Shown: piece after piece, positions 1 to 21,965 of the stretch
Layout: each line of letters starts with the position of its first letter
How positions within the stretch are numbered: the first letter of the stretch is position 1
Assembly: GCA_900767685.1 (NCBI GenBank)
Contig: CAAGAB010000080.1
Location: 1-29,168 of the forward strand
Direction of reading: 5' to 3'
Length of the DNA stretch: 29,168 nucleotides
Source: an uncultured Coprococcus sp.
Lineage (GTDB): Bacteria > Bacillota_A > Clostridia > Lachnospirales > Lachnospiraceae
Program-made: the position numbers and the translations under genes
Notes under the pieces: model-generated
What the model was told of the DNA's origin: nothing
Database searches by the model: none
Seen by the model: the letters and a program-made list of their open reading frames with translations, nothing else

Positions 1-20
1 ACACGACGCTCTTCCGATCT
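1..20 (+). other. Illumina sequencing adapter remnant
   Basis: The first 20 bases are identical to the 3' end of the Illumina TruSeq read-1 adapter (ends GCTCTTCCGATCT). They are not genomic. The contig therefore stops artificially inside the CRISPR array, and everything to the left is missing. Confidence 0.97.
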
Positions 21-1255
21 GATCTGCGATATATTCGCTATACATTTACATTCCACTATGTTTCTATTAAATCTGAGATTTTTAAATTGCTCCGCTGTCT
101 TGATCTCGGTATTTAAATTCCACTATGTTTCTATTAAATCTGTCGCTCAACTTGCAGTAATGAACAAGCGGTTTAGTATTTACATTCCACTATGTTTCTA
201 TTAAATCATAAATACATCAAAAGAAAGGACGCCGAGCAGATATTTACATTCCACTATGTTTCTATTAAATCGGAGCTCCTGGTACTGATACCGGTGCTTT
301 ATATCTTATTTACATTCCACTATGTTTCTATTAAATCTCTGACTTACGTGTGGGGCATGGATAGCACTGAGCAGATTTACATTCCACTATGTTTCTATTA
401 AATCAACTATGCCATGTTTAGATATATGTACCCTCAAAAATTTACATTCCACTATGTTTCTATTAAATCGACGCTGTTAGTATTTCAAAGTCCGTTGTAA
501 AAGCATTTACATTCCACTATGTTTCTATTAAATCCATTCACATGGTCACGGCATACCGTAACAAGGTCTTATTTACATTCCACTATGTTTCTATTAAATC
601 TGAGCGTGATTTTTATGAAAGTTTCGTGTGAAACTTTATTTACATTCCACTATGTTTCTATTAAATTTCGATTTCGCATTCATTCTCAGGTGCTTATATA
701 CATTTACATTCCACTATGTTTCTATTAAATTGCAATATACTTTACAAATACGTTAAGTAATTTAAGATTTACATTCCACTATGTTTCTATTAAATTTTCA
801 TATGCGTCTAGTACATTTTCTACGACATATATTTACATTCCACTATGTTTCTATTAAATTGGATATACATGATAACCGCTTATCGCAACAAGGTGTTATT
901 TACATTCCACTATGTTTCTATTAAATTAAATCTAACTCGTCAGAATATGTTAAGCGTATAACATTTACATTCCACTATGTTTCTATTAAATTAAAGGCTT
1001 TGCCGTGCCTTGACAGGTTGCGTGCTGATTTACATTCCACTATGTTTCTATTAAATTGGACACAGCAGAAACAGCACAGAATAATACTAAATTCAATTTA
1101 CATTCCACTATGTTTCTATTAAATTCACGGAAGGCTACTGCGTACCGTCTTAGAACGTGATTTACATTCCACTATGTTTCTATTAAATTAGAGCAGGATG
1201 TGACAATCTTTGTTTTTGATGAGGTATTTACATTCCACTATGTTTCTATTAAATT
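21..1255 (-). CRISPR. Type I-B CRISPR array, 19 repeats, truncated at the leader-distal end
   Basis: Nineteen near-identical repeats start at 44, 111, 178, 242, 308, 375, 440, 505, 571, 638, 702, 767, 831, 898, 963, 1028, 1096, 1160 and 1226. Each has a 29-base invariant core plus a thirtieth base that is C after repeats 1-9 and T after repeats 10-19. Spacers are 34-38 nt. Bases 21-43 are a partial nineteenth spacer cut by the adapter. Only repeat 2 differs in its core (C to A at 116). Read on the minus strand the repeat ends AGTGGAATGTAAAT. That closely resembles the C. difficile type I-B repeat end (GTGGTATGTAAAT), giving the crRNA 5' handle ATGTAAAT. Transcription is therefore leftward, away from cas2, with the newest spacer at 1190-1225. 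The repeat folds as a short ACAT/ATGT stem around AGTGGA. Confidence 0.98.
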
Positions 1256-3224: not shown

Positions 3225-5612
3225 CTACAGGAAATTATCCTCGTCATTTTTATTGAACAGATCCAGACCTACTCCTGTGCCCGTTTCCTCATCAAATTCA
3301 TAACGCATCGATGTTCTATGAATATTTGTACCTTCAATACATGTATCTATACCTTCCACACCATATTTGCTCGAATACAGATTAAGACTTAGTGTCCTGT
3401 CTAATATGTCTGATCTTATCAACTGCCTGATTTCTCTATCAACTCGCGGCGTTTGCAATAACTCTATCTCTTTTTCTATAATATCGCAGCTATTATAATA
3501 TTCATCATCAGGAATAAGTGTAATACTGTTTATTTCTCTGAAATCATAATCCACATCTTTCTTGCTCTTGTAATCAAGCGGTTTCAAGTTTTCAAATTTA
3601 TCTAGATTTTTCTTTATTGTATCAAAGTACCATGAACCTTTTATCGCATTAATATCATATACCTCATTTATATAGTTTCTTTTGTCTGTCTCTGACATCA
3701 ACTTCCCATCATATCTTCGCAAAGTCTCCACTGATCGATCATATATAACCCTATCATATATTCCTCTCTTCTTATCATTCCTTACACCTGAGTTATTTAC
3801 ATATACATATACATTAGGCTGATCCGTACTTTTATACCCAGCTCTATTGCATCGTCCCATTCTCTGTAATAGACTATCCGCAGTTGCCATCTCAGTGAAA
3901 AGTACATCAAAATCTATATCAAGACTGGCCTCTACTATCTGTGTTGTTATCCAGATTCCTATTGCGGATTCATCTTTGGAGAAATCCATTATTTTATTTT
4001 CCAGTATCCTTCTATGTCTGTTTATATATCTTGAATGGAGAAGATCACAGCACATTCCGCTTCCTATGATATCCATATATAATTTCTGTGCTTTTGTAAC
4101 TGTATTACAAATTACAAGAACCTTTTTCTGCTGCCCCTCTTCAACGATCTTATCAATGTCTAAATCTCCATTCACCATCTTTATACGATGTCTGTCATTC
4201 CTAGCACATGCCGAGAAATCCTGATATACATAATCCCTGTCTTCCAATAAGCCATGTTCTTTCATAAAATGCGACATAACCGGTGGAAATGTAGCCGTTA
4301 TAATTGCAAATTTTCCACCCATCATGTTTATCTCTTTAAGTCCGTATATCAGTGCCGCAACTATCTTGGGTGAATACGCCTGTATCTCATCGATTATGAG
4401 TTTTGAATACTTCAATGTTGCCGCAAATACTTCTGTGCCAGGGAATTTATACACAAATTTCAATAGCTGATCAACAGTACACACTGTAAGAGGATATGCA
4501 AGTAGTTTTGCTCGCTCATACCGTTTCTGCTGATCACCAATAGTATCTGAATTGCTGCTTGAGTAATAACTCAGACTGTTTGAATGAAGTATAGCTGTAT
4601 TTTCAAATTCGTATTTATATTTAATCCTCTCATATATCGCATTTGCCGATACCCTAAGTGGCAATGTATAAAACCCCTTATCGCCGTTCAGCCAGAGTAA
4701 TGCTGCTTCTGTCTTGCCTGAACCTGTAGGTGCTATCATCACGACATTTTTGTCAGAATTAGCTTTCATGTATTCCTGGGCCGGTCGAAGAGATCCCTGC
4801 ATCTTCGTCTCTATATTTTTGCATAACTTCTTTTCAAAAATATCAACACCTAGCTCTGCTTCCTCATATCCGGAACTAACCGTCCAATCGAACTTATTCA
4901 ACATGCCTTTAACGAGCATATATTCACACCACACATCTTGGGGTGGTTTAATATATTTAACCAAAACATCATGCCCCTCTGAGAATAACAAAAAGTTCCT
5001 GTTATCTATTATAAGTTCGATTTCCTTATCCAGATATGCTCTAATCTCATTTAAATACCATCTCTCAGCATATCTTTCAATATCATCGATAGTATATATA
5101 TCATCTCTATCATGATGATAATATATAGAAGAAACCAAAATTATAAAATCATCCTCCATATAGCCCATGTTGTTTTCAATCATTTCTTCAGCTATATCTT
5201 CTTCGTCAAAACTTAACGCACTAAAAAAACCATGTGGTATCTGTTGCACATCACCAGCTACGTGAATATCCGGATTTACCACGGACTGAAACACTAAATT
5301 TGCTTTACCAACATCATGCCATTCACAAGCCTTCATGATCAGATACTTTTCCTTGTCAGAAAAATGTGTACCATATACCACAAAGAATTTTTCTGCACAT
5401 TTCAAAATTTCATTTGTATGTGCTGCCAATGTTTTGTGCTCACCATTATAAACTTGCATGTTAATGTCTTCCAAATACTTTTTTAACTTATATACAAGCT
5501 CTGAATTATCTCCCCCTTTGTATTCATTTATCAATGCACTCGTGCCTGCTATAATTTTATCAACTTTATCTTTAGGCATTTGTTTATCAATAGATTTTGC
5601 ATAATATTCCAT
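3225..5612 (-). CDS. cas3: CRISPR-associated nuclease-helicase Cas3
   Basis: This 795-residue protein is the target-degrading effector recruited by Cascade. An N-terminal HD nuclease shows HTNEIL near residue 65, the HD pair in CEWHDVGKA (His99/Asp100), an HGFF motif and YYHHDRDD. The helicase follows: Walker A APTGSGKT (294-301), Walker B DEIQ (408-411), TATFP, and motif VI QRMGRCNR (583-590). All expected motifs are intact. The ATG at 5612 is preceded by GGGGGGAGAG; an ATG at 5627 lies inside that ribosome site and is rejected. It follows cas5 after a gap that contains a CRISPR-repeat-like element. Confidence 0.97.
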   Translation of the reverse strand: MEYYAKSIDKQMPKDKVDKIIAGTSALINEYKGGDNSELVYKLKKYLEDINMQVYNGEHKTLAAHTNEILKCAEKFFVVYGTHFSDKEKYLIMKACEWHDVGKANLVFQSVVNPDIHVAGDVQQIPHGFFSALSFDEEDIAEEMIENNMGYMEDDFIILVSSIYYHHDRDDIYTIDDIERYAERWYLNEIRAYLDKEIELIIDNRNFLLFSEGHDVLVKYIKPPQDVWCEYMLVKGMLNKFDWTVSSGYEEAELGVDIFEKKLCKNIETKMQGSLRPAQEYMKANSDKNVVMIAPTGSGKTEAALLWLNGDKGFYTLPLRVSANAIYERIKYKYEFENTAILHSNSLSYYSSSNSDTIGDQQKRYERAKLLAYPLTVCTVDQLLKFVYKFPGTEVFAATLKYSKLIIDEIQAYSPKIVAALIYGLKEINMMGGKFAIITATFPPVMSHFMKEHGLLEDRDYVYQDFSACARNDRHRIKMVNGDLDIDKIVEEGQQKKVLVICNTVTKAQKLYMDIIGSGMCCDLLHSRYINRHRRILENKIMDFSKDESAIGIWITTQIVEASLDIDFDVLFTEMATADSLLQRMGRCNRAGYKSTDQPNVYVYVNNSGVRNDKKRGIYDRVIYDRSVETLRRYDGKLMSETDKRNYINEVYDINAIKGSWYFDTIKKNLDKFENLKPLDYKSKKDVDYDFREINSITLIPDDEYYNSCDIIEKEIELLQTPRVDREIRQLIRSDILDRTLSLNLYSSKYGVEGIDTCIEGTNIHRTSMRYEFDEETGTGVGLDLFNKNDEDNFL

Positions 5613-5625
5613 GTTCTCTCCCCCC

Positions 5626-5654
5626 ATAATTTATCCACTATGTAACTATTAACC
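5626..5654 (-). repeat. Solitary degenerate CRISPR repeat in the cas5-cas3 gap
   Basis: Read on the minus strand (the cas mRNA sense), the core TTAATAGTTACATAGTGGA (5634-5652) matches the array repeat at 17 of 19 positions, with both mismatches adjacent. The last third of the repeat, including the crRNA handle, is not conserved. A CATA/TATG stem can still form. It fills most of the 51-base gap between the cas5 stop and the cas3 start. It could be a Cas6 cleavage or binding site in the operon mRNA, or a relic. The match is seen directly; the role is inferred. Confidence 0.7.
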
Positions 5655-8911: not shown

Positions 8912-9634
8912 CTACGCGAGTATATCAAATTTACCTTTTCCCTCAGATCTCCTTGCCCCAATTCCTGCCATATACAATAGATTCAACAGATCCCTGTCAC
9001 CCTTGAGTTTAAATATCCCCAACGAAGCATCTGTATTCCTACCAAACACAGGAATCACAACCTTTTTTGCCTTGATCGGTTCAATCCCAAAACTGTCAGA
9101 TTTCACAGGTATGTTCATCCTATCGATAAAAATATCTATATTCTCCCTCAGCGCCTGCTCAAATCCATCCGTATTGTATACATAATACTTATCTGAATTA
9201 TCATCCGAATTGTGTCTTCTGACGATCAAAGGACTAGACATTCTGATTATTATCTCGTCATCTTTGATCTCATTCATATTCTGAATATACATCGACACCA
9301 ACTGCATAGAATTTCCCGCCATGGGATACTTCTGATACTTCATTCCCTGGAATGCATTAAAGAACTTCATCAACTCTCCCTGATCAGCATCAGAAAAAAA
9401 CATTGTAAATTCGTTCTTCTGTAACTCTATGCCATCTTTAACAAATGCTGCACCAGGAAGATTAAACGAATATGTGTATGTTTTTATTATCGATCTGCTT
9501 TTATCATATAACGCATTAAACATATCCTTGGAATATCGTTCTGTTGCCGCCTTGAAGAAACTGAGCATAAGCCGATCCATTTCCTTTGGCAAATGATTGT
9601 TCTCCAATTTAAATAGAATTTTTAATTGAAACAT
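8912..9634 (-). CDS. cas6: CRISPR RNA processing endoribonuclease Cas6
   Basis: This 240-residue protein is the first gene of the cas operon. It cuts the repeat RNA to release crRNAs with an 8-base 5' handle. The C-terminal glycine-rich segment GIGARRSEGKGKFDIL (about 224-239) is the family signature, and the RAMP-type N-terminus (QLKILFKLEN) is present. The ATG at 9634 follows AGGAGAGGAGGTG. Cas6 would also be expected to recognise the degenerate repeats of the divergent RNA gene upstream, because their stems are kept. No defect is seen. Confidence 0.94.
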   Translation of the reverse strand: MFQLKILFKLENNHLPKEMDRLMLSFFKAATERYSKDMFNALYDKSRSIIKTYTYSFNLPGAAFVKDGIELQKNEFTMFFSDADQGELMKFFNAFQGMKYQKYPMAGNSMQLVSMYIQNMNEIKDDEIIIRMSSPLIVRRHNSDDNSDKYYVYNTDGFEQALRENIDIFIDRMNIPVKSDSFGIEPIKAKKVVIPVFGRNTDASLGIFKLKGDRDLLNLLYMAGIGARRSEGKGKFDILA

Positions 9635-9665
9635 TTATATAATTCACCTCCTCTCCTATGATTTA

Positions 9666-9694
9666 TTTTTAACATAAATACTATCATCTGTCAA
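9666..9694 (-). promoter_or_regulatory. Probable cas operon promoter
   Basis: On the minus strand, TTGACA (9694-9689) is followed after 17 bases by TAAAAA (9671-9666) with an extended -10 TG one base before it. Transcription would start near 9659, about 25 bases before the cas6 ATG. A second TTGACA at 9720-9715 lacks a convincing -10. The -35 box lies inside the roughly 36-base footprint expected for Cascade bound to the adjacent target. Confidence 0.65.
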
Positions 9695-9698
9695 TATC

Positions 9699-9723
9699 TA
9701 TTACATATAAAATGTGTCAATGG
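9699..9723 (-). promoter_or_regulatory. Predicted Cascade target (PAM plus protospacer) in the cas promoter
   Basis: Reading the minus strand from 9723, CCA is followed by TTGACACATTTTATATGTAA, continuing TA. It matches the spacer-like segment at 9833-9854 at 20 of 22 positions, including the first 17 without a gap. CCA is the strong PAM of the related C. difficile type I-B system. The target lies 4 bases upstream of the likely cas -35 box, oriented so that Cascade would cover that box. Confidence 0.75.
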
Positions 9724-9779
9724 ATTATTTTATTATTTTTTTATTCATAAATACCTAATTCAACTTCTCATATTTGTCA

Positions 9780-9808
9780 TTGATATCTACGTTTATTTAA
9801 TATATAAT
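9780..9808 (+). promoter_or_regulatory. Promoter of the divergent CRISPR-like RNA
   Basis: TTGATA (9780-9785) and a consensus TATAAT (9803-9808) are separated by exactly 17 bases. Transcription would start near 9815, right at the first stem of the degenerate repeat. The -10 box occupies the place of the 5' half of the repeat, which explains why that half is not conserved. Confidence 0.8.
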
Positions 9809-9814
9809 CCAACT

Positions 9815-9920
9815 ACATTGTGGAATGTAAATTTGACACATTTTATATGCAATCTATTAATTGTTACATTTTGGAACTATCACAATGTATAAAAGCTTGT
9901 ATTATATACAAGCTTTTAAT
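9815..9920 (+). ncRNA. creR: CreR-like crRNA predicted to repress the cas promoter
   Basis: This unannotated RNA of about 105 nt is divergent from cas6. Its first element (9815-9832, the 3' part of a repeat) matches the array repeat 17/18, including the full ATGTAAAT handle. A 22-nt spacer-like segment (9833-9854) follows, then a second degenerate repeat (about 9855-9889) matching positions 3-22 of the repeat at 15/20, then a terminator hairpin. The spacer segment matches the cas promoter region 20/22 next to CCA. Known CreR RNAs direct Cascade to repress cas genes through such short matches. Partial pairing lets binding occur without the long R-loop needed for Cas3 cleavage. The locus structure is seen directly; the function is inferred. 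The gene symbol is by analogy. Confidence 0.78.
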
Positions 9921-9925
9921 TTTAT
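9891..9925 (+). terminator. Terminator of the CRISPR-like RNA
   Basis: An 11-bp perfect stem, AAAAGCTTGTA (9891-9901) and TACAAGCTTTT (9907-9917), with a 5-base loop is followed by AATTTTATATT. It directly follows the second degenerate repeat and closes the small RNA gene. Confidence 0.8.
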
Positions 9926-10129
9926 ATTATTATACATCATTCCCCTCATCCCTGTCCTACCATTCACTCCCGATTTTCGACCACTCATTCCAGCACACCC
10001 TCGAAATCGACAACATTTACCATCCCTTAACCGCGATTATTACCACCCACTTACTCTGTCATTCTCTCCCGTCTATCCCCTTCTCCCCAAGAAGGCCGCC
10101 TTCCGGCTGCCTCCCCCATGTCGTTCATC
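9926..10129. other. Intergenic stretch, no gene seen
   Basis: This stretch of about 200 bases is C- and T-rich on the plus strand. Possible open frames have no ribosome site and no recognisable sequence. A GAAGGC/GCCTTC palindrome lies near 10090. It may be decayed DNA next to the exonuclease fragment. Confidence 0.5.
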
Positions 10130-13070: not shown

Positions 13071-16000
13071 TTAATACTTTTTATATATTGCATTCTTTGG
13101 CGCTGCCACACCCTTTGCCTTAATCTTAGCCATATATGACTTATAGTATTTCTTTGGTATCTTGAATGTTATCTTTGACTTTGTGCCCTTGAATGCATTC
13201 TTCGATACAGTCTTGAGTTTTGCCGAACCAACTTTGACAGTGGCAAGGCTCTTGCAACCGCTGAATGCTGATGCACCTATGGTCTTAACATTTGCGCCAA
13301 TTGAGACTGCTGTCATCTTGCTGCATCCGCCGAATGCGCTCTCTCCTATGGTTGTCACCTTTCCGCCAACAGTCAGTGTCTTAAGTGATGTGCAGCCATA
13401 GAAAGCAGCCTTGCCTATGGTTTTAAGCTTATTATTTACCGGCATTGCTGTGAGCGACTTACATTTATAGAATGCATAACCGCCTATAGCTGTAACATTC
13501 TTGAATGCCGGAATAGTCTTGAGTGCTGTACATCCGCTGAATGCATATGTTCCTACAGAGACAACATTTGCACCTCCAGCAACCTTGACAATACTCTTGT
13601 AGTCCTTGAATGCTTTGCTGCCTATAGCTGTAACTTTAAATTTCACTCCGTCTATAGTTACAGTATCACTGATCTTAAGTGTCTTGAACTTTCCATTGGA
13701 CTTGGCAACTGTTGTGCCTATAAGTCCTACAGTTCCCTTGCCATTCAGATCAGCATTTGTGATCTTGTACTTGTACACTATGTTAGTCTTTGGCTGCTTT
13801 ACTGCAAATACAGAATTCCTTACTATCTTGATCTGGAATGATTTTGTGATAGTTCCTCTGTATTTTCTGATACCATTTATTGTAACCTTTGCAGTGCCAT
13901 GTTTTTTATTGTTCGAATATGCTACCGTGTAATCAGTACCCTTTCTTAGAACCGTTCTGCCCGATGTAACTTTCAGATTCTTTAGGGTAATTGCTCTTCC
14001 AGTATATTTCTGAGGATCAAGTCCGGATACCTTTATCTTGTATTTTGGATTAGTGATATCCTTGCCAAGTGCTGGAATCGGCACAGTCTTCACATATCCG
14101 CAGACCTTACACTTATATACCTTGCTTCCGGCTGCTGTATCAGTAGGACTTGTCTTTATGCTTCCTGAGTCAAATGTATGCTTTGCCTTATTCTGGATAT
14201 CCTTGCAGCTGCATTCCTTCCAGTGATATGTAGCATTGCTCTTGTATGCATCGCCATAATCATGTACATGCTCTTTGACGATCTCAACCTTAACTTGGAA
14301 TACCACACCTCTGTAAGCTCTGTTCCAGCCCTCTACTCCTGACCAGTCATAGTTAGTTATATCAGCAGGCTTAAAGCACAGCTTGTATGTTCCGCCATCT
14401 TCAGCCTTTGTTGTTCTGTCTGTGTACCATGTGTAGATTCCATTCTCTGCCTCCGGAAGTACTATATCAGCCAGAGTGTCATTTTCTTTTGCTGTGAGCT
14501 TGTCTATAGCCTGTGTGAACTTAGCCTCAGCCGGCTTTACCTCAACTGTGATCTCTATATGCTCTGCTCTTTCATACACATCCTCATCAGATGGCACAAA
14601 TGTTGCAAGGAACTTCTTTGTTCCAACATCACCGACTGACTCATCAGCATTTTCCCAGATGAACATTCCGCCTTCTGCTTCTGGAATAACAGCCTTTCCT
14701 ACAGTTTCTCCATATATAGCTGTCACACCCTCAGGTACAGTGTATACAGGATCCTGCTTTCTCACATATACCGCAAGTTTCACTGATATTCTGACACTGC
14801 CGTCCTCTAACTGCTCATACGTTCCTGAAGCAGTGTCAAGCTTGCTCCAGTCATAGTTGACCGTATCTTTCGGTACAAAGTATGCATCGTAATTGTCTTC
14901 GGATCCAGCCTTGCCAACCAACTGTGTGCTGTCTGCCCAGCTATATACACCAAATGCTGACTTTGGAAGTGCTACATCAGCAAGTGTTTTGCCTGCATAT
15001 GCGGTTCCGGCCTTTGATGCAGCAAGTGTCGGGATACCCTTCTCTATCTTCTCTATGGTAAGCATGAATTCAGCTGTGGTCTGGTTCTGTCCTCTCACAA
15101 TGATCTTCACTGTCTGAGCCTTGTCAGAAGCCTTGACCGGAGTACCATATATCTTGCCGCCTGACATCGCAAGTCCATCAGGAAGGGCCTGCCCCTTAGC
15201 AAGTGAGTATGCGACATAGCCGTTTTCAACATTCTCATCATTCTGAACCTCTATCTTTGTGAGGTCATAGAGCGGAGCATACTTGCTAGTTGCCACTCCG
15301 ACCTGTGCCGTAATCTTGTCCTCAGTCTTTGCAAGAGTTATATTGGTTGCTTCCTGCTTCGCCATGTTGATCACAGCATGTGTCGGCTCATATGCCACTG
15401 TTCCGCGCCACTTGACATTGTTACTTGACGTTGCCTCATTCTGTGCTGAACCATATACCACAGAATCTATCTTCATACCATCTATCGGTTCGCCGTCAAC
15501 TGTCACGTAGAAATCCATATTTCCAGCTATGTATACATTTGTATCACCGTCAATGCCTGACGTCTTCTGATAGTTAGTATTTGTTGCCGCTATGCTTATC
15601 TTTGCATCCTCGCCCTTGAAGCAGTATGCCGGATACTCTGCATCAACTTTATAGTACACACTGCTGTAGTTCTTCAGCACATACTTGAAATTCGGAATCG
15701 TTGTTGTGAGTACCTTTCCAATATCGGAGAAGCTGTTATAATATGTCTCTTCCAGAGAACCATAATTTACTATGGTTCCACTGTTGACCATATCCCCGAA
15801 TGTAAATGTAGCATCTTCACGGTTGATGAACATTGAAGAAGCATTGATCCTTGTACTGTATGATCTGTTCGAAACCGTTGTGACGGTTCCATAGTTGTCA
15901 ACTTTACCACTGATACTTGATGCGCTGCTGTCACCAACGTACATATACTTCTTTGTATTCCAGATTCCATTGTTGACAAATGTTCCCTCTACATAGACAT

Positions 16001-19000
16001 TGCCCTCTGAGGCCCATGTTCCGTTATTCTCAACATCTCCTTCGATGACAGCATTTGCTGTATGCTTAATTGATGCACCCTCAGCAACTTTGATCTTTGA
16101 ACCAGAAGTTACATTGAGGATATCGGTCTCAATGTTCTCATCAACAGTGTATGTACCGCCGAGAACAAGTTTATCATTGATCTTTAAGAAGAGTGAGCCA
16201 TTATGTGTCACCTGGAAATTCTCTGAAAGTCCTGTAACACTCGCAGTGGTATTGCCACTGACATCATTGAAATAAATATCATTTACCTCTCCGCTTGCAG
16301 CAAGAACGATCTTACCGCTCACAGCATCTTCCGTAGCCGATCTTACATTTATATTGCGAATCTTATTGTTCATATTACCGTATACAAATGCTTTTGAATT
16401 ATCATTTGAATTACCACAGCCTATATAACCTGACTTCAGCTCAGCATTCAGATCTCCAGCCACATTGGAACTGTTTACAAATGTATTTGTTCTTCCTGCA
16501 TACCAGTCACCATTCAGAGTGTAATTGACATCTCCTGACACAGGTGTCCTGTAAACTCCGTAGAAGAAAGCGTACGTGCTTCTATACAACTTTGTACCAT
16601 AGGCAAATGCCTCTCTTGTTCTCAACACACCTACCTCTGCATTTACATCTCCAGATACACTTCCTCCGCTTGTGACATACAATTCTTCCTTACCTGTGCT
16701 TGAATAATTGTTGTCCGCGTACATCATAGCTGTCTTTGTGAATGCAAAATTCATCGTCTGCACATCTGAATTATATGCACCATAGGCCTTCTTATATATC
16801 TTTCCGCCTTCTGCAATGAAATTCACCGCAGCAGCATGTACATTGTATGCGCCATATATTTCTGTTCTTACGGTGCCTCCCAGCATCTTTACAGTAACAT
16901 CACCCTCAACAGTTACATTTGCAGCTCCGGACTCGTTTGAACCTGCACCATACAGGGAACCTACCGTACCGCTTCTGAGAACTATTGATATATCGCCGGT
17001 ATACGCATTGTCTCCATCTGTATAACCATATATCTTGCACTTCGACAGGTCGTAACTTGTCTCACCGCCTATCTTAAGCGCTCTGTTGTTGTCTGCTATT
17101 CCGTCATGGTCTGCATCCATGTATATGGAAGACTTTGATGCATTTGACGGATCAGCTATTATCACAACTGAACACCCGGCAAGATTTATCTTACTTACGG
17201 ATGCGTCAGTTACCACTTTGTTGATATCGGACACTTCCGTGCCGGCAGCCTTTACTGTAAACTTCACGTTTACATCAACGGATGTTCCATTTCTTCCTGT
17301 CACAACAAATGTCACATCTGTCTCACCTGTTTCGGATGTCCTGCCTGTTATCTTGCCATCAGCAAGCACAAGACCCTCTGGGAGCTTTGAACCGCTCTTT
17401 ACTCTGTACTGCATATCTGTACCGTATGATGAAGTGGTGTCTCCTGTCACATCAAGTGCTGTGAGATCATATACAGGCTCCTCGGCTGTATAGCTTGTAT
17501 CTGCTACGATCACAGGATCAGCATATTTCTTTGTCACTGCGATCTGATCTGCCACGTAATCAGCAGTTGCGCTCATAACTGTATTTGCTGTTGCGACCAG
17601 CGCAGATCCCGAATCTCCCTTTATTGGATCTCCGCCATTTATCGATACATACACTGTATATCCCGGTACATCTGTATACTTTGCCGTGACTAAAGAATTG
17701 TTTCTTGCATATATCAGTCCCTCGTATTCCACTACCCTGCTCTGAGTTGGAATGGAAACCGAAGTTCCCTTCATATTCGTAGTACCGCGTTCAACATTGT
17801 AGTAGATTCCGGCCCACTCGCCTGCATCTACACCTTCTGCAAATTCTCCTGCCTTTACCCATGTTCCCTCATTTGAGAACTTATCTGAAGGGCACTTGAA
17901 TGTTCCTTTCTGATATACTTTTGCCCAGCTGTCTGATATCTTGACTTCATCTGTCTCAAACTCCGACTCTGCCCCAATGATAAGTACATTATTGTAACTT
18001 GTCATATACAGAGTATTTATCTTGACATCCCCATCAAACTGAGCAGATGAATTTCTTGAGAATGAAAGACCGCCGGCGGTAATCGCAGCCGTTGCTGTAA
18101 GCTTAGATTTTTCATACATTCTCAGATATCCTGTGAGCTCAAGCGGAGCCTCCACTGATGCTTCAGATTCATTGTCCAAATCAAAATCATTTGCAGCAAC
18201 CTTCTCTGTAACTGTATACTTCTTGTATATCATGATATTATCTTTTGCTGTTCTGAGAAGTGCTCCTGTGTATGTTGATGTACTTCCACTTACCAAACCA
18301 CCTGTGATCACAGCACCTGTGCAGTTCTCATAAGAGATCGTACCATCTACCTGGGTATTTACAATCGCATATACCTCACCCACATTACCGCCTTTGATAA
18401 CTACCGCAACAGCATCTCTTCCGCTGCAGCTCAGTTCTGAGTCAACCGCACCATATATCTTCTGCACGCTTCCTCCCAGCATAGTTATCTTTACGCTGCG
18501 CTTAAATTCGCTGTCATCAACTCCAACCACAGTGTATTCTGACAAATCTCCACTGAATAACGGTGTCTTGTTGTCAGCCTGTCCATCCTTGTTAGAATCG
18601 ATATAGATCTCTGTGATCACAGGACTTTCAGCCCCTGTTTCATCCGACGAAGCTTCCGCACTGTTCTCTGCAGCCTGCAATACAACTGATGTTCCATTCA
18701 GACTTATCTGTTTATTCTCTTCATCGACTGTTATACGTCCGTCTGTATTTTCCTGTATCTTCTGCTCTTTCGAAACAACAACATTCAGCGTGATCTGTGT
18801 CTTTGTTCCATTCTTTCCTGTTATATGGATTACTGCTTTCTTTCCATCCTCATATGCCGCTGTCGGTGTTCCAATTATAAGACCGCCATCAAGCACAAGC
18901 CCCTCCGGAAGTATATAATCCTTGTCCATCTCATAGGTTACTTTGCCCTCTTTGCCATCATTCAGGATCACAACATCCGACATATCATACAGTGGCTTTT

Positions 19001-21890
19001 CTGCTGTGTATTTCTGACCGAGCACAGCTGAAGGATCTGACACTGTCTTTGATGTCTTTATCTGCTTACCTTTTGTTGAGACTGTCACTATACATGGTTT
19101 TTTCGGCATGGCAAATGTATACTTGCCTGATGTCTCTGTCAGCTCATTATTCTGAGTCTCATCACTTCCCCTAAACACTACCTTTTCAAGTGTATATCCT
19201 CTCTTGATAACCGGTGTCAGCGTCAAGACTGAATCTACATATGCATACATAGTATCCTTATCAAGATAACAGGTGTAGCCAGGATTGCTCACTGTCACAG
19301 CCTTGTCATCACATACCAGAGTAACCGGGTAGTATACATGGGCATTTTCATACAGCGTTTCGTCTGCCACTATGCCCTCTTTCATATATACAGAACCGTA
19401 TGATGAATCATCTGTTCTCTTAAACGTTCCAGAGAATTTTCCCGAGTTAAGGATATTTGCACCAGCGGTGAAATATATCCCTTCCTGAGCACTTACTGTC
19501 ACTCCCTTGTTAATGACTGCATATACAGCAGATGTCGATTTTCTGCTGGAATAATTACCAAAGTAGATGTTATCAGCATTTACATCTTTATCTATAACTA
19601 CTTTATCGCCGCCATAGTATACATCTCCTCCATATGTGACAATTGAATCTCCATAACCGTTGTATGCAGGACATATGTAATATCCATCAGGGAGAATACA
19701 CTTCTCGTCAAATGCTACCCTTACTTTTCTGTTCTGATTCGCATTTACCTGAAAGCTTGCATTCTTCATACCTGTAAAGTCTGTATTCTCTATCTTGATG
19801 TCAGCAGAAAGCTGTATGGCTGAATCACTGCTTGAGCCATTGCCATACTCATTCAGAAGATATACCGTACTGCCGTTATATGTACTTTCAAAGCTGCTGT
19901 CCTTCAGAGTAACCGTTGTATTTATGCCACTTACTTTTCCACTGTAGCTGCCACCTGCAAGACCGCACGATGCATAATGGATATTGGACAGATCCGCAGT
20001 CAGATCACCGATAACCGAACAACTGCTCAGGAGATTAAACTCACCCTTTCCTGCATTGGTGTATGAGTCTACCACCGGATTGCCAGCCGCATCGACAATT
20101 GCCTTGTCATTTGCATACTGCATATTGACATCCAGATTCTTAGCACATGTACCTGAATATGCCACTGTACACAAGTTGCTGATGACATTCCTGATGTCAA
20201 CAGATGCATTTTCTGCAAATGTAGCTGTATTCAGCACGTACAGACTGTTCTTGAAAGCACTGTCTGTCAAAGTAAGATCAAAATCCCCAACAACCGTAGA
20301 TGAACTGCCATTTCCCCTCAGAATATATGCATTTTCTGCACTGCAGTTGGACACATCCATCTTGAGTTTTCCTGTTATGGCACCTGAAAAATCCAATCCA
20401 TACAGATAGTTATCTGACTTTATATTATCCAGGATCATGTGTGTCGAACCCATAGTCGAAACATAGTACACACCGTATGTGTAATATGAGCTGTTTGCAA
20501 TGTTCTTAAGCGTTATCACATTCGCATAGGCATCGGCTCCTTCCGGTGACGACTGTTCAAGCTTGGCTGAATAAATACCATACATAGAACTTGATACATT
20601 GATATTCTCTATATCGATATTTACCATGCCCTTCACGGTTCCACTGTTGAGTCCGTATACTGAAGCAAATTCAGCGCCCTGTCCATCTATATCTATATCT
20701 ACATCACCCAATATATCTGAATTTGAGGTTCCATAGACAGAAATGCCTTTTCCTTTTGCATTCTTTACTTCAAATTTAAGTTTTCCTGCAATATTTGCAC
20801 TATATGCCCCGTACATATTTGAATAACTGTCACTGCACTCTATGCCGTTTAATCTGATACTCACATCACCGGCTGCACTGGCACTGTTGCTCACACCATA
20901 CATCGCATTGAGTGTTGTGTTACTTATATCCACAGTAACACCACCCAGCGTATGAGCGCCATTGGTCACCGCATACACATATCCAAGCTTGGCATTCTTT
21001 GCCGTCAGGACAACATTGCCCTTCACCGCATAATCTTTGCCTGAGTATGTGCCATTTGTCGCAGCATACACATATCCACTGCCCTTGTCAGCCTTGAGCA
21101 TACTGTTCACTGTGAGGCTGCCATTGATGGTAGATGCATACACTCCGTACAGATAACCGACGTCAACCGTATTGTCCGTATACACGTCCACGCTTCCTGA
21201 GGCATATCCTACCTGAATACCGTACACTGTTCCAGCAAATGCATTGTCGGTTATATCAATGTCAATATCCCCATCCACCTTGCTCTGCAATGCACCTTGC
21301 AGCTGGGAAACATTGCAATCTCCAGATATGTTGATCTTCATGGATCCTACAGCCTCTGACGAATACAAACATGTCGCCGCAGAAACATTTGATCCCTTAT
21401 TCACAGTTATTGAAACTGCAGGATCTGAGTCGGTGTTCTCATATTCCATGGCGCCTTTGTAGACACCCCATACATTCCCAATGGATGCCCCGTCAACGGT
21501 GATGGAGATCGGAGTCTTAGTCTTTTCTCCATAAACGCCATATACCTGATATGGAAGTATATCTGTGCTGCCATCGATCTCAAATGCTTCCTCACCTTCA
21601 TCCAGAACTCCATCCCGATCCTTATCATTGTAGACATTGAGTCTCGGCTCCGAACTCGTAGAATTCAGCGATTGCCTGATTATGACAGAATTACCATTCA
21701 GATTGATTCCTTCTACACTTGTGGTCGAGCCTTCGTAATACCTGTACTCTATACCCTTTGACGGATCTGCCATGACAAGTGTACTGCCATCATCAGTCTC
21801 CTCCGCATAGACCGCCACACCCTGTGCCAGACACAGAGCCGTCGCCAGCGAAAGTACAGCTATACCTCCTCTTAGCTTTCTTTTTCTCAT
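13071..21890 (-). CDS. Giant secreted BspA-type leucine-rich-repeat protein
   Basis: This protein of about 2,939 residues is probably exported and cell-surface or released. A signal peptide (RKRKLRGG, then a hydrophobic stretch ending VAVYAEE) covers about residues 1-30. Three related modules follow, each with a calcium-loop-like segment (NDKDRDGVLDEGEE, DSNKDGQADN, DADHDGIADN) leading into beta-solenoid-like repeats with a recurring VYG or IYGA motif. Each module ends in an Ig-like domain with LPEGLVL...G. Around residue 2542 is a His/Cys domain (YHWKECSC...KCKVC), then BspA-type LRR_5 repeats (about 2755-2905). I see no LPXTG motif or C-terminal membrane anchor. The ATG at 21890 follows GGGAGGG by 6 bases. 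An adhesion role is inferred. Confidence 0.85.
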   Translation of the reverse strand: MRKRKLRGGIAVLSLATALCLAQGVAVYAEETDDGSTLVMADPSKGIEYRYYEGSTTSVEGINLNGNSVIIRQSLNSTSSEPRLNVYNDKDRDGVLDEGEEAFEIDGSTDILPYQVYGVYGEKTKTPISITVDGASIGNVWGVYKGAMEYENTDSDPAVSITVNKGSNVSAATCLYSSEAVGSMKINISGDCNVSQLQGALQSKVDGDIDIDITDNAFAGTVYGIQVGYASGSVDVYTDNTVDVGYLYGVYASTINGSLTVNSMLKADKGSGYVYAATNGTYSGKDYAVKGNVVLTAKNAKLGYVYAVTNGAHTLGGVTVDISNTTLNAMYGVSNSASAAGDVSIRLNGIECSDSYSNMYGAYSANIAGKLKFEVKNAKGKGISVYGTSNSDILGDVDIDIDGQGAEFASVYGLNSGTVKGMVNIDIENINVSSSMYGIYSAKLEQSSPEGADAYANVITLKNIANSSYYTYGVYYVSTMGSTHMILDNIKSDNYLYGLDFSGAITGKLKMDVSNCSAENAYILRGNGSSSTVVGDFDLTLTDSAFKNSLYVLNTATFAENASVDIRNVISNLCTVAYSGTCAKNLDVNMQYANDKAIVDAAGNPVVDSYTNAGKGEFNLLSSCSVIGDLTADLSNIHYASCGLAGGSYSGKVSGINTTVTLKDSSFESTYNGSTVYLLNEYGNGSSSDSAIQLSADIKIENTDFTGMKNASFQVNANQNRKVRVAFDEKCILPDGYYICPAYNGYGDSIVTYGGDVYYGGDKVVIDKDVNADNIYFGNYSSRKSTSAVYAVINKGVTVSAQEGIYFTAGANILNSGKFSGTFKRTDDSSYGSVYMKEGIVADETLYENAHVYYPVTLVCDDKAVTVSNPGYTCYLDKDTMYAYVDSVLTLTPVIKRGYTLEKVVFRGSDETQNNELTETSGKYTFAMPKKPCIVTVSTKGKQIKTSKTVSDPSAVLGQKYTAEKPLYDMSDVVILNDGKEGKVTYEMDKDYILPEGLVLDGGLIIGTPTAAYEDGKKAVIHITGKNGTKTQITLNVVVSKEQKIQENTDGRITVDEENKQISLNGTSVVLQAAENSAEASSDETGAESPVITEIYIDSNKDGQADNKTPLFSGDLSEYTVVGVDDSEFKRSVKITMLGGSVQKIYGAVDSELSCSGRDAVAVVIKGGNVGEVYAIVNTQVDGTISYENCTGAVITGGLVSGSTSTYTGALLRTAKDNIMIYKKYTVTEKVAANDFDLDNESEASVEAPLELTGYLRMYEKSKLTATAAITAGGLSFSRNSSAQFDGDVKINTLYMTSYNNVLIIGAESEFETDEVKISDSWAKVYQKGTFKCPSDKFSNEGTWVKAGEFAEGVDAGEWAGIYYNVERGTTNMKGTSVSIPTQSRVVEYEGLIYARNNSLVTAKYTDVPGYTVYVSINGGDPIKGDSGSALVATANTVMSATADYVADQIAVTKKYADPVIVADTSYTAEEPVYDLTALDVTGDTTSSYGTDMQYRVKSGSKLPEGLVLADGKITGRTSETGETDVTFVVTGRNGTSVDVNVKFTVKAAGTEVSDINKVVTDASVSKINLAGCSVVIIADPSNASKSSIYMDADHDGIADNNRALKIGGETSYDLSKCKIYGYTDGDNAYTGDISIVLRSGTVGSLYGAGSNESGAANVTVEGDVTVKMLGGTVRTEIYGAYNVHAAAVNFIAEGGKIYKKAYGAYNSDVQTMNFAFTKTAMMYADNNYSSTGKEELYVTSGGSVSGDVNAEVGVLRTREAFAYGTKLYRSTYAFFYGVYRTPVSGDVNYTLNGDWYAGRTNTFVNSSNVAGDLNAELKSGYIGCGNSNDNSKAFVYGNMNNKIRNINVRSATEDAVSGKIVLAASGEVNDIYFNDVSGNTTASVTGLSENFQVTHNGSLFLKINDKLVLGGTYTVDENIETDILNVTSGSKIKVAEGASIKHTANAVIEGDVENNGTWASEGNVYVEGTFVNNGIWNTKKYMYVGDSSASSISGKVDNYGTVTTVSNRSYSTRINASSMFINREDATFTFGDMVNSGTIVNYGSLEETYYNSFSDIGKVLTTTIPNFKYVLKNYSSVYYKVDAEYPAYCFKGEDAKISIAATNTNYQKTSGIDGDTNVYIAGNMDFYVTVDGEPIDGMKIDSVVYGSAQNEATSSNNVKWRGTVAYEPTHAVINMAKQEATNITLAKTEDKITAQVGVATSKYAPLYDLTKIEVQNDENVENGYVAYSLAKGQALPDGLAMSGGKIYGTPVKASDKAQTVKIIVRGQNQTTAEFMLTIEKIEKGIPTLAASKAGTAYAGKTLADVALPKSAFGVYSWADSTQLVGKAGSEDNYDAYFVPKDTVNYDWSKLDTASGTYEQLEDGSVRISVKLAVYVRKQDPVYTVPEGVTAIYGETVGKAVIPEAEGGMFIWENADESVGDVGTKKFLATFVPSDEDVYERAEHIEITVEVKPAEAKFTQAIDKLTAKENDTLADIVLPEAENGIYTWYTDRTTKAEDGGTYKLCFKPADITNYDWSGVEGWNRAYRGVVFQVKVEIVKEHVHDYGDAYKSNATYHWKECSCKDIQNKAKHTFDSGSIKTSPTDTAAGSKVYKCKVCGYVKTVPIPALGKDITNPKYKIKVSGLDPQKYTGRAITLKNLKVTSGRTVLRKGTDYTVAYSNNKKHGTAKVTINGIRKYRGTITKSFQIKIVRNSVFAVKQPKTNIVYKYKITNADLNGKGTVGLIGTTVAKSNGKFKTLKISDTVTIDGVKFKVTAIGSKAFKDYKSIVKVAGGANVVSVGTYAFSGCTALKTIPAFKNVTAIGGYAFYKCKSLTAMPVNNKLKTIGKAAFYGCTSLKTLTVGGKVTTIGESAFGGCSKMTAVSIGANVKTIGASAFSGCKSLATVKVGSAKLKTVSKNAFKGTKSKITFKIPKKYYKSYMAKIKAKGVAAPKNAIYKKY

Positions 21891-21965
21891 CAATTACCCT
21901 CCCTGATAAAACTTTTATGACCCTTCGTGATACATATGCGTGCTATATTTTGTGCACTATGACAC

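What the first reader, a model, noticed from the sequence alone, without database searches (positions are those of the whole stretch)
9699..9883. CRISPR-guided autorepressor (CreR-like) RNA: a mini-CRISPR aimed at the cas promoter
Directly seen: a degenerate repeat (3' 18 nt match 17/18, handle intact), a 22-nt segment at 9833-9854, and a second degenerate repeat. The 22-nt segment matches the minus strand of the cas promoter region (9720-9699) at 20/22, with the first 17 positions identical and CCA as the preceding PAM. Its own copy is preceded by AAT (repeat end), so it would not target itself. Established: in CreR systems crRNA-like RNAs with short matches send Cascade to repress cas operons without cleavage. 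Inference: this locus senses free Cascade and crRNA supply, and loss of Cascade (for example by anti-CRISPRs) would derepress cas. I know of no description for this Lachnospiraceae I-B (Tneap) repeat type.
Basis: partly seen in the sequence, partly recalled or inferred. Interest (0 to 1): 0.95.

Follow-up and report, generated by a model that had tools for sequence, protein, structure and literature searches.

The report
Mini-CRISPR that silences its own cas
Beside its CRISPR immune genes this bacterium carries a tiny CRISPR-like element whose guide matches the control region of those same genes, and many related bacteria keep that match with entirely different letters, so the immune complex likely uses it to turn down its own production.

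Summary
At 9815-9832 lies a degenerate CRISPR repeat (17/18; next best non-array site 14/18), then a 22-nt guide whose first 17 nt match minus strand 9720-9704 exactly behind CCA, in the cas6 promoter region; then a second degenerate repeat (15/22) and a terminator-like stem. A full type I-B cas gene set follows. I scanned cas6 upstream regions of 72 loci, window included: 20 of 72 have a degenerate repeat followed by a 17-nt guide matching at least 14/17 nearby behind a CC PAM (shuffles: 1 of 1440). The guides differ (three of one genus are alike), so guide and target change together. Of 25 mismatches at positions 1-15, 22 fall at 6 or 12, the bases that do not pair in a type I R-loop; matching ends near base 17. 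An operator or antisense RNA does not predict this. Best reading: a CreR-type RNA that directs Cascade to repress cas. Transcription, processing and repression are inferred; crRNA or anti-CRISPR sensing is untested. 52 of 72 loci show no such hit. CreR is known for types I-B, I-E and V-A, so this is a new, well-supported member.

The parts
9780..9808 (+). predicted promoter of the mini-CRISPR RNA (TTGATA-17-TATAAT); start expected near 9815
   Evidence: 11 of 12 consensus; consensus match only
9815..9832 (+). first degenerate repeat (psi-R1), only the 3' 18 nt of the repeat, with the 8-nt handle ATGTAAAT intact
   Evidence: 17/18; next best non-array site in window 14/18
9833..9854 (+). short guide (psi-S), 22 nt; first 17 nt match the cas promoter region
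9855..9876 (+). second degenerate repeat (psi-R2): first 22 nt of the repeat kept at 15/22, 8-nt handle lost
9890..9918 (+). terminator-like stem-loop with T tail
   Evidence: 1 found, mean 0.0 in shuffles
9704..9723 (-). target: PAM CCA (9723-9721) and 17-nt protospacer (9720-9704)
9665..9720 (-). two promoter-like sites for cas6: TTGACA-16-GATATT (9720-9693), whose first hexamer lies inside the protospacer, and TTGACA-18-AAAAAT (9694-9665), which begins 9 bases past it
   Evidence: 10 of 12 each; consensus matches only
8912..9634 (-). cas6, first gene of the type I-B operon
   Evidence: TIGR01877
1433..8896 (-). cas8b1, cas7 (Cst2), cas5, cas3, cas4, cas1, cas2
44..1254 (-). CRISPR array, 19 repeats, 18 spacers of 35-39 nt

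Best explanation
The element is a mini-CRISPR (degenerate repeat, 22-nt guide, degenerate repeat) beside the type I-B cas operon, and its RNA is predicted to load into Cascade and lead it to the cas6 promoter, where the 17-base match would let it bind and likely repress the operon without cutting it. Shown by sequence: the two repeats, the guide, the CC PAM, the match that ends at base 17, and the same relation with other letters in 19 other loci, with mismatches placed at bases 6 and 12. Inferred: transcription from the promoter at 9780-9808, Cas6 processing to an 8-nt 5' handle, Cascade binding, repression. Further inferred from published CreR work: array crRNAs compete for Cascade and anti-CRISPRs disable it, either of which would raise cas expression.
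For: Repeat, guide, PAM and target present. Same layout with unrelated guides in relatives: 20 of 72 loci tested at 14/17 or better with CC PAM, against 1 of 1440 shuffled regions; 20 of the 21 loci with any such match have CC although PAM was not used to choose. All 6 of the relatives with cas6 at least 47% identical that have 120 nt or more upstream carry it; the seventh, L145, has only 94 nt and could not be tested. Matches per position in the 20 loci: 1-5 in 99 of 100 cells, 7-11 in 99 of 100, position 6 in 7 of 20, position 12 in 11 of 20, 13-16 in 76 of 80, 17 in 13 of 20, 18-26 in 59 of 180. Unbroken matching runs at most 2 bases past base 17 in each of the 20. 22 of 25 mismatches within 1-15 are at 6 or 12 (binomial 8.6e-17; assumes evenness and independence). 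Published mutagenesis of a type I-B CreA shows positions 6 and 12 do not matter and the other ten of the first twelve do (PMC8501985, passages). PAM fits the CCN/YCN of a clostridial I-B system (PMC8406132, abstract). Nothing but promoter and leader lies between target and cas6, so the regulated gene would be cas itself.
Against: 52 of 72 loci gave no strict hit with a CC PAM (50 of 72 in the relaxed scan), among them L030, eighth in the list, and L093, from the same genus as L096-L098; L162, found later, has none either. No RNA or expression data. The loci share ancestry, so the p-value overstates independence. In some relatives (L104, L113, L122) the target is 237-304 nt from cas6, so not every hit need be a cas repressor. 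The second repeat of L001 is no better than 17.5% of shuffles. The predicted full RNA folds so that its 5' end pairs with a stretch before the terminator, which could compete with the Cas6 hairpin.
Confidence: 0.9

Rival explanations
1. CreTA-type antitoxin: the RNA represses a toxin gene rather than cas.
For: CreA genes have the same anatomy (PMC8501985, passages). In relative L104 a 23-aa hydrophobic ORF with a good ribosome site lies between target and cas6.
Against: In the window only about 70 nt of promoter and leader separate the target from cas6, and a pattern search for ORFs of 10-90 aa behind a ribosome site listed none in the 500 nt upstream of the window's cas6. A toxic RNA without an ORF was not looked for.
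Confidence: 0.04
2. The two matching stretches are the arms of a protein operator (inverted repeat).
For: In the window the two copies are inverted, about 110 nt apart, and the target overlaps a promoter-like site.
Against: Across the 20 loci the arms share no common sequence (three loci of one genus are alike), 5 of 20 pairs are direct rather than inverted (L102, L104, L133, L113, L130), one arm follows a repeat and the other CC, and mismatches cluster at 6 and 12. The repeat was a condition of the scan; CC was not.
Confidence: 0.02
3. Antisense RNA pairing with cas mRNA.
For: A divergent small RNA next to a 5' leader is a common antisense layout (recalled).
Against: In the window the guide RNA has the same sense as the cas strand, so it cannot pair with cas mRNA, and the target lies at the promoter. 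Strand relation varies among the 20 loci: guide antisense and target sense in 8, the reverse in 7, both antisense in 3, both sense in 2. A plain RNA duplex gives no reason for mismatches at bases 6 and 12 only.
Confidence: 0.01
4. A decayed orphan array whose spacer was picked up from the host by mistake and is no longer used.
For: Repeats are degenerate; self-derived spacers occur (recalled).
Against: A captured spacer would match over its whole 35-39 nt; here the unbroken match ends at or before base 19 in each of the 20 loci while bases 1-5 and 7-11 stay near perfect. Decay would not keep the match through guide turnover.
Confidence: 0.03

Closest known systems
CreR, cas-regulating RNA (Liu et al. 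2023, Cell Host Microbe, doi 10.1016/j.chom.2023.08.005; not held, seen only through passages of reviews PMC12737573 and PMC13131331)
   Same: crRNA-like RNA, partial match to the cas promoter, generally no toxin gene; reported for types I-B, I-E and V-A
   Different: other lineage as far as known here; the first repeat is cut to its 3' 18 nt with the predicted start at its edge, guide 22 nt, match 16-17 nt. Whether the 2023 set held such loci could not be checked
CreA of CreTA (haloarchaea; PMC8501985 and PMC9458426, passages read)
   Same: two degenerate repeats, the first keeps the 8-nt handle, the second loses it; PAM; pairing at 1-5 and 7-11 with 6 and 12 free
   Different: target is a toxin promoter there, the cas promoter here; pairing to base 11 there, 16-17 here
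tracr-L of Cas9 (name recalled; Cas9 autorepression is mentioned in PMC13131331, passage)
   Same: guide RNA with a short match makes the effector repress its own operon (recalled)
   Different: class 2, derived from tracrRNA, other effector (recalled)
Racr, phage RNA anti-CRISPRs (PMC10651486, search listing only)
   Same: RNA that mimics CRISPR repeats
   Different: phage-borne, used to block immunity; no guide to a cas promoter is mentioned in the listing

Membership tests
CreR | repeat-guide-repeat element next to the cas operon | tested here: met
CreR | guide partly complementary to the cas promoter behind a functional PAM | tested here: met
   17/17 with CCA, promoter-like sites at the target. 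That CC is functional in this host is taken from C. difficile, not tested
CreR | match too short for cleavage | tested here: met
   window match ends at base 17; matching is 59 of 180 at positions 18-26 over 20 loci. Absence of cleavage itself not tested
CreR | no toxin gene under the target | tested here: met
   for the window; L104 may differ
CreR | RNA made and processed by Cas6 | not testable with these tools
   promoter and terminator predictions only
CreR | Cascade-dependent repression of cas, relieved by crRNAs or anti-CRISPRs | not testable with these tools
   needs experiment
CreTA | toxin gene under the targeted promoter | tested here: not met
   only leader between target and cas6; no small ORF with ribosome site listed
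protein operator | conserved inverted arm sequence | tested here: not met
   arms unrelated between lineages, 5 of 20 direct

The most novel reading that the evidence does not exclude
Type I-B systems of this bacterial lineage carry a two-layer self-brake that rewires itself: a mini-CRISPR RNA with a shortened guide builds a dedicated small Cascade that sits on the cas promoter, guide and promoter drifting together so that each species has its own private address, while a lone repeat-derived Cas6 site between cas5 and cas3 in the cas mRNA lets Cas6 cut off cas3-cas4-cas1-cas2 from the Cascade genes.
Probability: 0.25. Interest if true: 0.78.

Novelty: new member of a known kind. Interest (0 to 1): 0.55.

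Why it matters
It indicates, from natural variation alone, that the guide works through a Cascade R-loop: bases 6 and 12 drift while the rest of the first 16 stay nearly fixed, across 20 loci. That gives a simple rule to look for such self-repressors in other type I systems and predicts each one's target. If right, cas output in this lineage would be set by free Cascade, so array growth or anti-CRISPRs would change it, which could be tested in a relative with a named strain (L001).

Tried and rejected
Plasmid records: no similar DNA to window 8912-10060. Rfam: two matches far below their family cut-offs, E 0.53 and 0.63, both minus strand, starting at 9887-9889 and so covering the terminator; taken as chance. 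Independent PAM from array spacers: two exact 18-20-nt patterns, covering 3 of 18 spacers, gave no hit in viral contigs; the array against phage records hit one phage, and the piece read there holds repeats. The guide's first 17 nt hit 7 viral contigs; I took this as chance for an AT-rich 17-mer by a rough estimate of my own, not by a call. A first orientation rule for array repeats was wrong for L025 and was corrected. The hit for L041 (14/17, PAM AAA) is counted as a miss for PAM. A second draw of the same family gave nearly the same set: 20 of its 21 listed matches were known.

Rows dropped before counts: of 75 loci, L145 and L146 had under 120 nt upstream, and L121 was dropped by hand because array repeats lie upstream of its second cas6; its first cas6 gave no hit. 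72 remained (one cas6 copy per locus). L002 (36% over 46 residues) and L090 (contig start) were not used. Of 18 places without a locus, 8 were fetched on their own, 4 fell inside stretches fetched for a neighbour and 6 were not fetched. L162 was scanned alone, with the generic repeat: no hit. L037 and L039 enter only in the relaxed scan, which presumes CC and ignores bases 6 and 12 (22 of 72, shuffles 3 of 720); I first noticed them by eye.

Full report
WHAT IS THERE. The window holds a full type I-B gene set on the minus strand, cas6-cas8b1-cas7-cas5-cas3-cas4-cas1-cas2, followed by a 19-repeat array. Upstream of cas6, on the opposite strand, 9815-9832 matches the last 18 nt of the array repeat at 17/18, including all of the 8-nt handle; the next best non-array site on either strand is 14/18. 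The next 22 nt, 9833-9854, match minus strand 9720-9699 at 20/22, the first 17 exactly, and that site is preceded by CCA. Then comes a weaker second repeat (15/22 to the repeat's first 22 nt, handle lost) and a terminator-like stem. A promoter-like TTGATA-17-TATAAT ends six bases before the first repeat, so the RNA is predicted to start right at the base of the small hairpin in the repeat (inference). The target covers the first hexamer of one promoter-like site for cas6 and ends 9 bases short of the first hexamer of a second.

COMPARATIVE TEST. From these, 75 loci including the window were laid out and 72 could be scanned. The scan asked for a stretch of at least 12/18, and 6/8 in the handle, to the locus's own array repeat (a generic repeat where no array was in reach), then for any place from 650 nt upstream to 40 nt inside cas6 matching the following 17 nt at 14 or better. 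PAM and mismatch position were not used. 21 of 72 loci gave a hit, 20 with CC at the first two PAM places; dinucleotide shuffles of the same regions gave 19 hits in 1440, one with CC. The guides are unrelated to each other except among three loci of one genus (L096-L098), where guides L097 and L098 differ at base 7 (G or A) and their targets differ the same way.

THE CASCADE SIGNATURE. Over the 20 loci, bases 1-5 match in 99 of 100 cells and 7-11 in 99 of 100, base 6 in 7 of 20, base 12 in 11 of 20, bases 13-16 in 76 of 80, base 17 in 13 of 20, and bases 18-26 in 59 of 180. Unbroken matching goes at most 2 bases past base 17 in each locus. Of 25 mismatches at 1-15, 22 are at 6 or 12 (8.6e-17 if mismatches fell evenly and independently; related loci make this too strong). 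Published mutagenesis of a type I-B CreA shows just these two bases among the first twelve to be free, as they take no part in pairing with the target DNA (PMC8501985, passages). The profile therefore points to DNA targeting by Cascade, ending after the third pairing block. Full-length guides would be expected to lead to cutting (general knowledge of type I systems; not tested here), so the early stop fits repression.

WHY NOT OTHER THINGS. An operator would keep its arm sequence and its inverted layout; the arms differ between lineages and 5 of 20 pairs are direct. An antisense RNA to cas mRNA is excluded in the window by strand. A toxin target is not seen: only leader lies between target and cas6. 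The guide is short, 22 nt here and 16-34 in the others, against 35-39 for the window's array spacers and mostly 34-39 in the 15 loci with an array in reach. Second repeats were tested against shuffles in those 15 loci: 14 of 15 were reached by 1.5% of shuffles or fewer, L001 by 17.5%.

LIMITS. 52 of 72 loci have no strict hit with CC; loss or replacement by another regulator is possible in some (L093 shows no recognisable first repeat), and the generic repeat may miss others. No RNA, binding or expression was measured. The PAM of this host was not derived independently; CC rests on its enrichment at the targets and on C. difficile (PMC8406132 abstract). The primary CreR paper is not held; its content is taken from passages of two reviews. 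Paper searches that bear on whether such loci were described; no title in their listings names CreR in this lineage, but the lists were cut and most subscription papers are outside that library. The genus and family of the window are not told by any search; the nearest named relative is Faecalicatena contorta (58% in Cas6).

VERDICT. A likely CreR-type cas autorepressor in a bacterial type I-B lineage, with unusually clear evolutionary evidence for the mechanism.

Noticed in passing
window 5626-5654 (minus strand); same junction in L001, L025, L026, L027, L145, weaker L028: Between cas5 and cas3 lies a lone element like the first 21 nt of the CRISPR repeat, handle lost, on the mRNA strand. In the window, L025, L026, L027, L028 and L145 it is the best non-array sense-strand match in the scanned stretch (14-17 of 19; best antisense match 12-14); in L001 seen by eye only, not by the scan; absent in L029. 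Possible Cas6 cut site inside cas mRNA.
   Followed up: partly
   Followed up: partly
L147 1508-1693 (Fusobacterium phage phiFN37, OR492271.1): A phage carries four type I-B-like repeats with short spacers (22-25 nt between repeats) that resemble one another around TATAAAAT. A pattern with CC PAM, 2 mismatches allowed, found in the phage two of these spacers themselves and one further place preceded by GCA. The guides might aim at a host promoter.
   Followed up: partly
window 9814-9822 with 9881-9889: The RNA's 5' end is complementary over 9 nt to a stretch before the terminator; in the other 19 loci the longest such match is 7 nt. Unexplained; could compete with the Cas6 hairpin.
   Followed up: partly
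L032, about 4248-4340 from its cas6 start: Two repeats about 62 nt apart between cas5 and cas3, the first with handle; its guide had no other match in the 17-kb stretch at 11 of 14 core bases or better.
   Followed up: partly
window 1-20: The contig end reads like an Illumina adapter on the minus strand (adapter recalled, sequence): assembly artefact.
   Followed up: no
window 534-570 and 860-897: Two array spacers are alike (family D2, 88% over spacer and repeat), suggesting two captures from related invaders.
   Followed up: no
window 13071-21893 (minus strand): Open frame of 2940 aa with 69-nt spaced repeats near one end; looks like a large repetitive protein.
   Followed up: no
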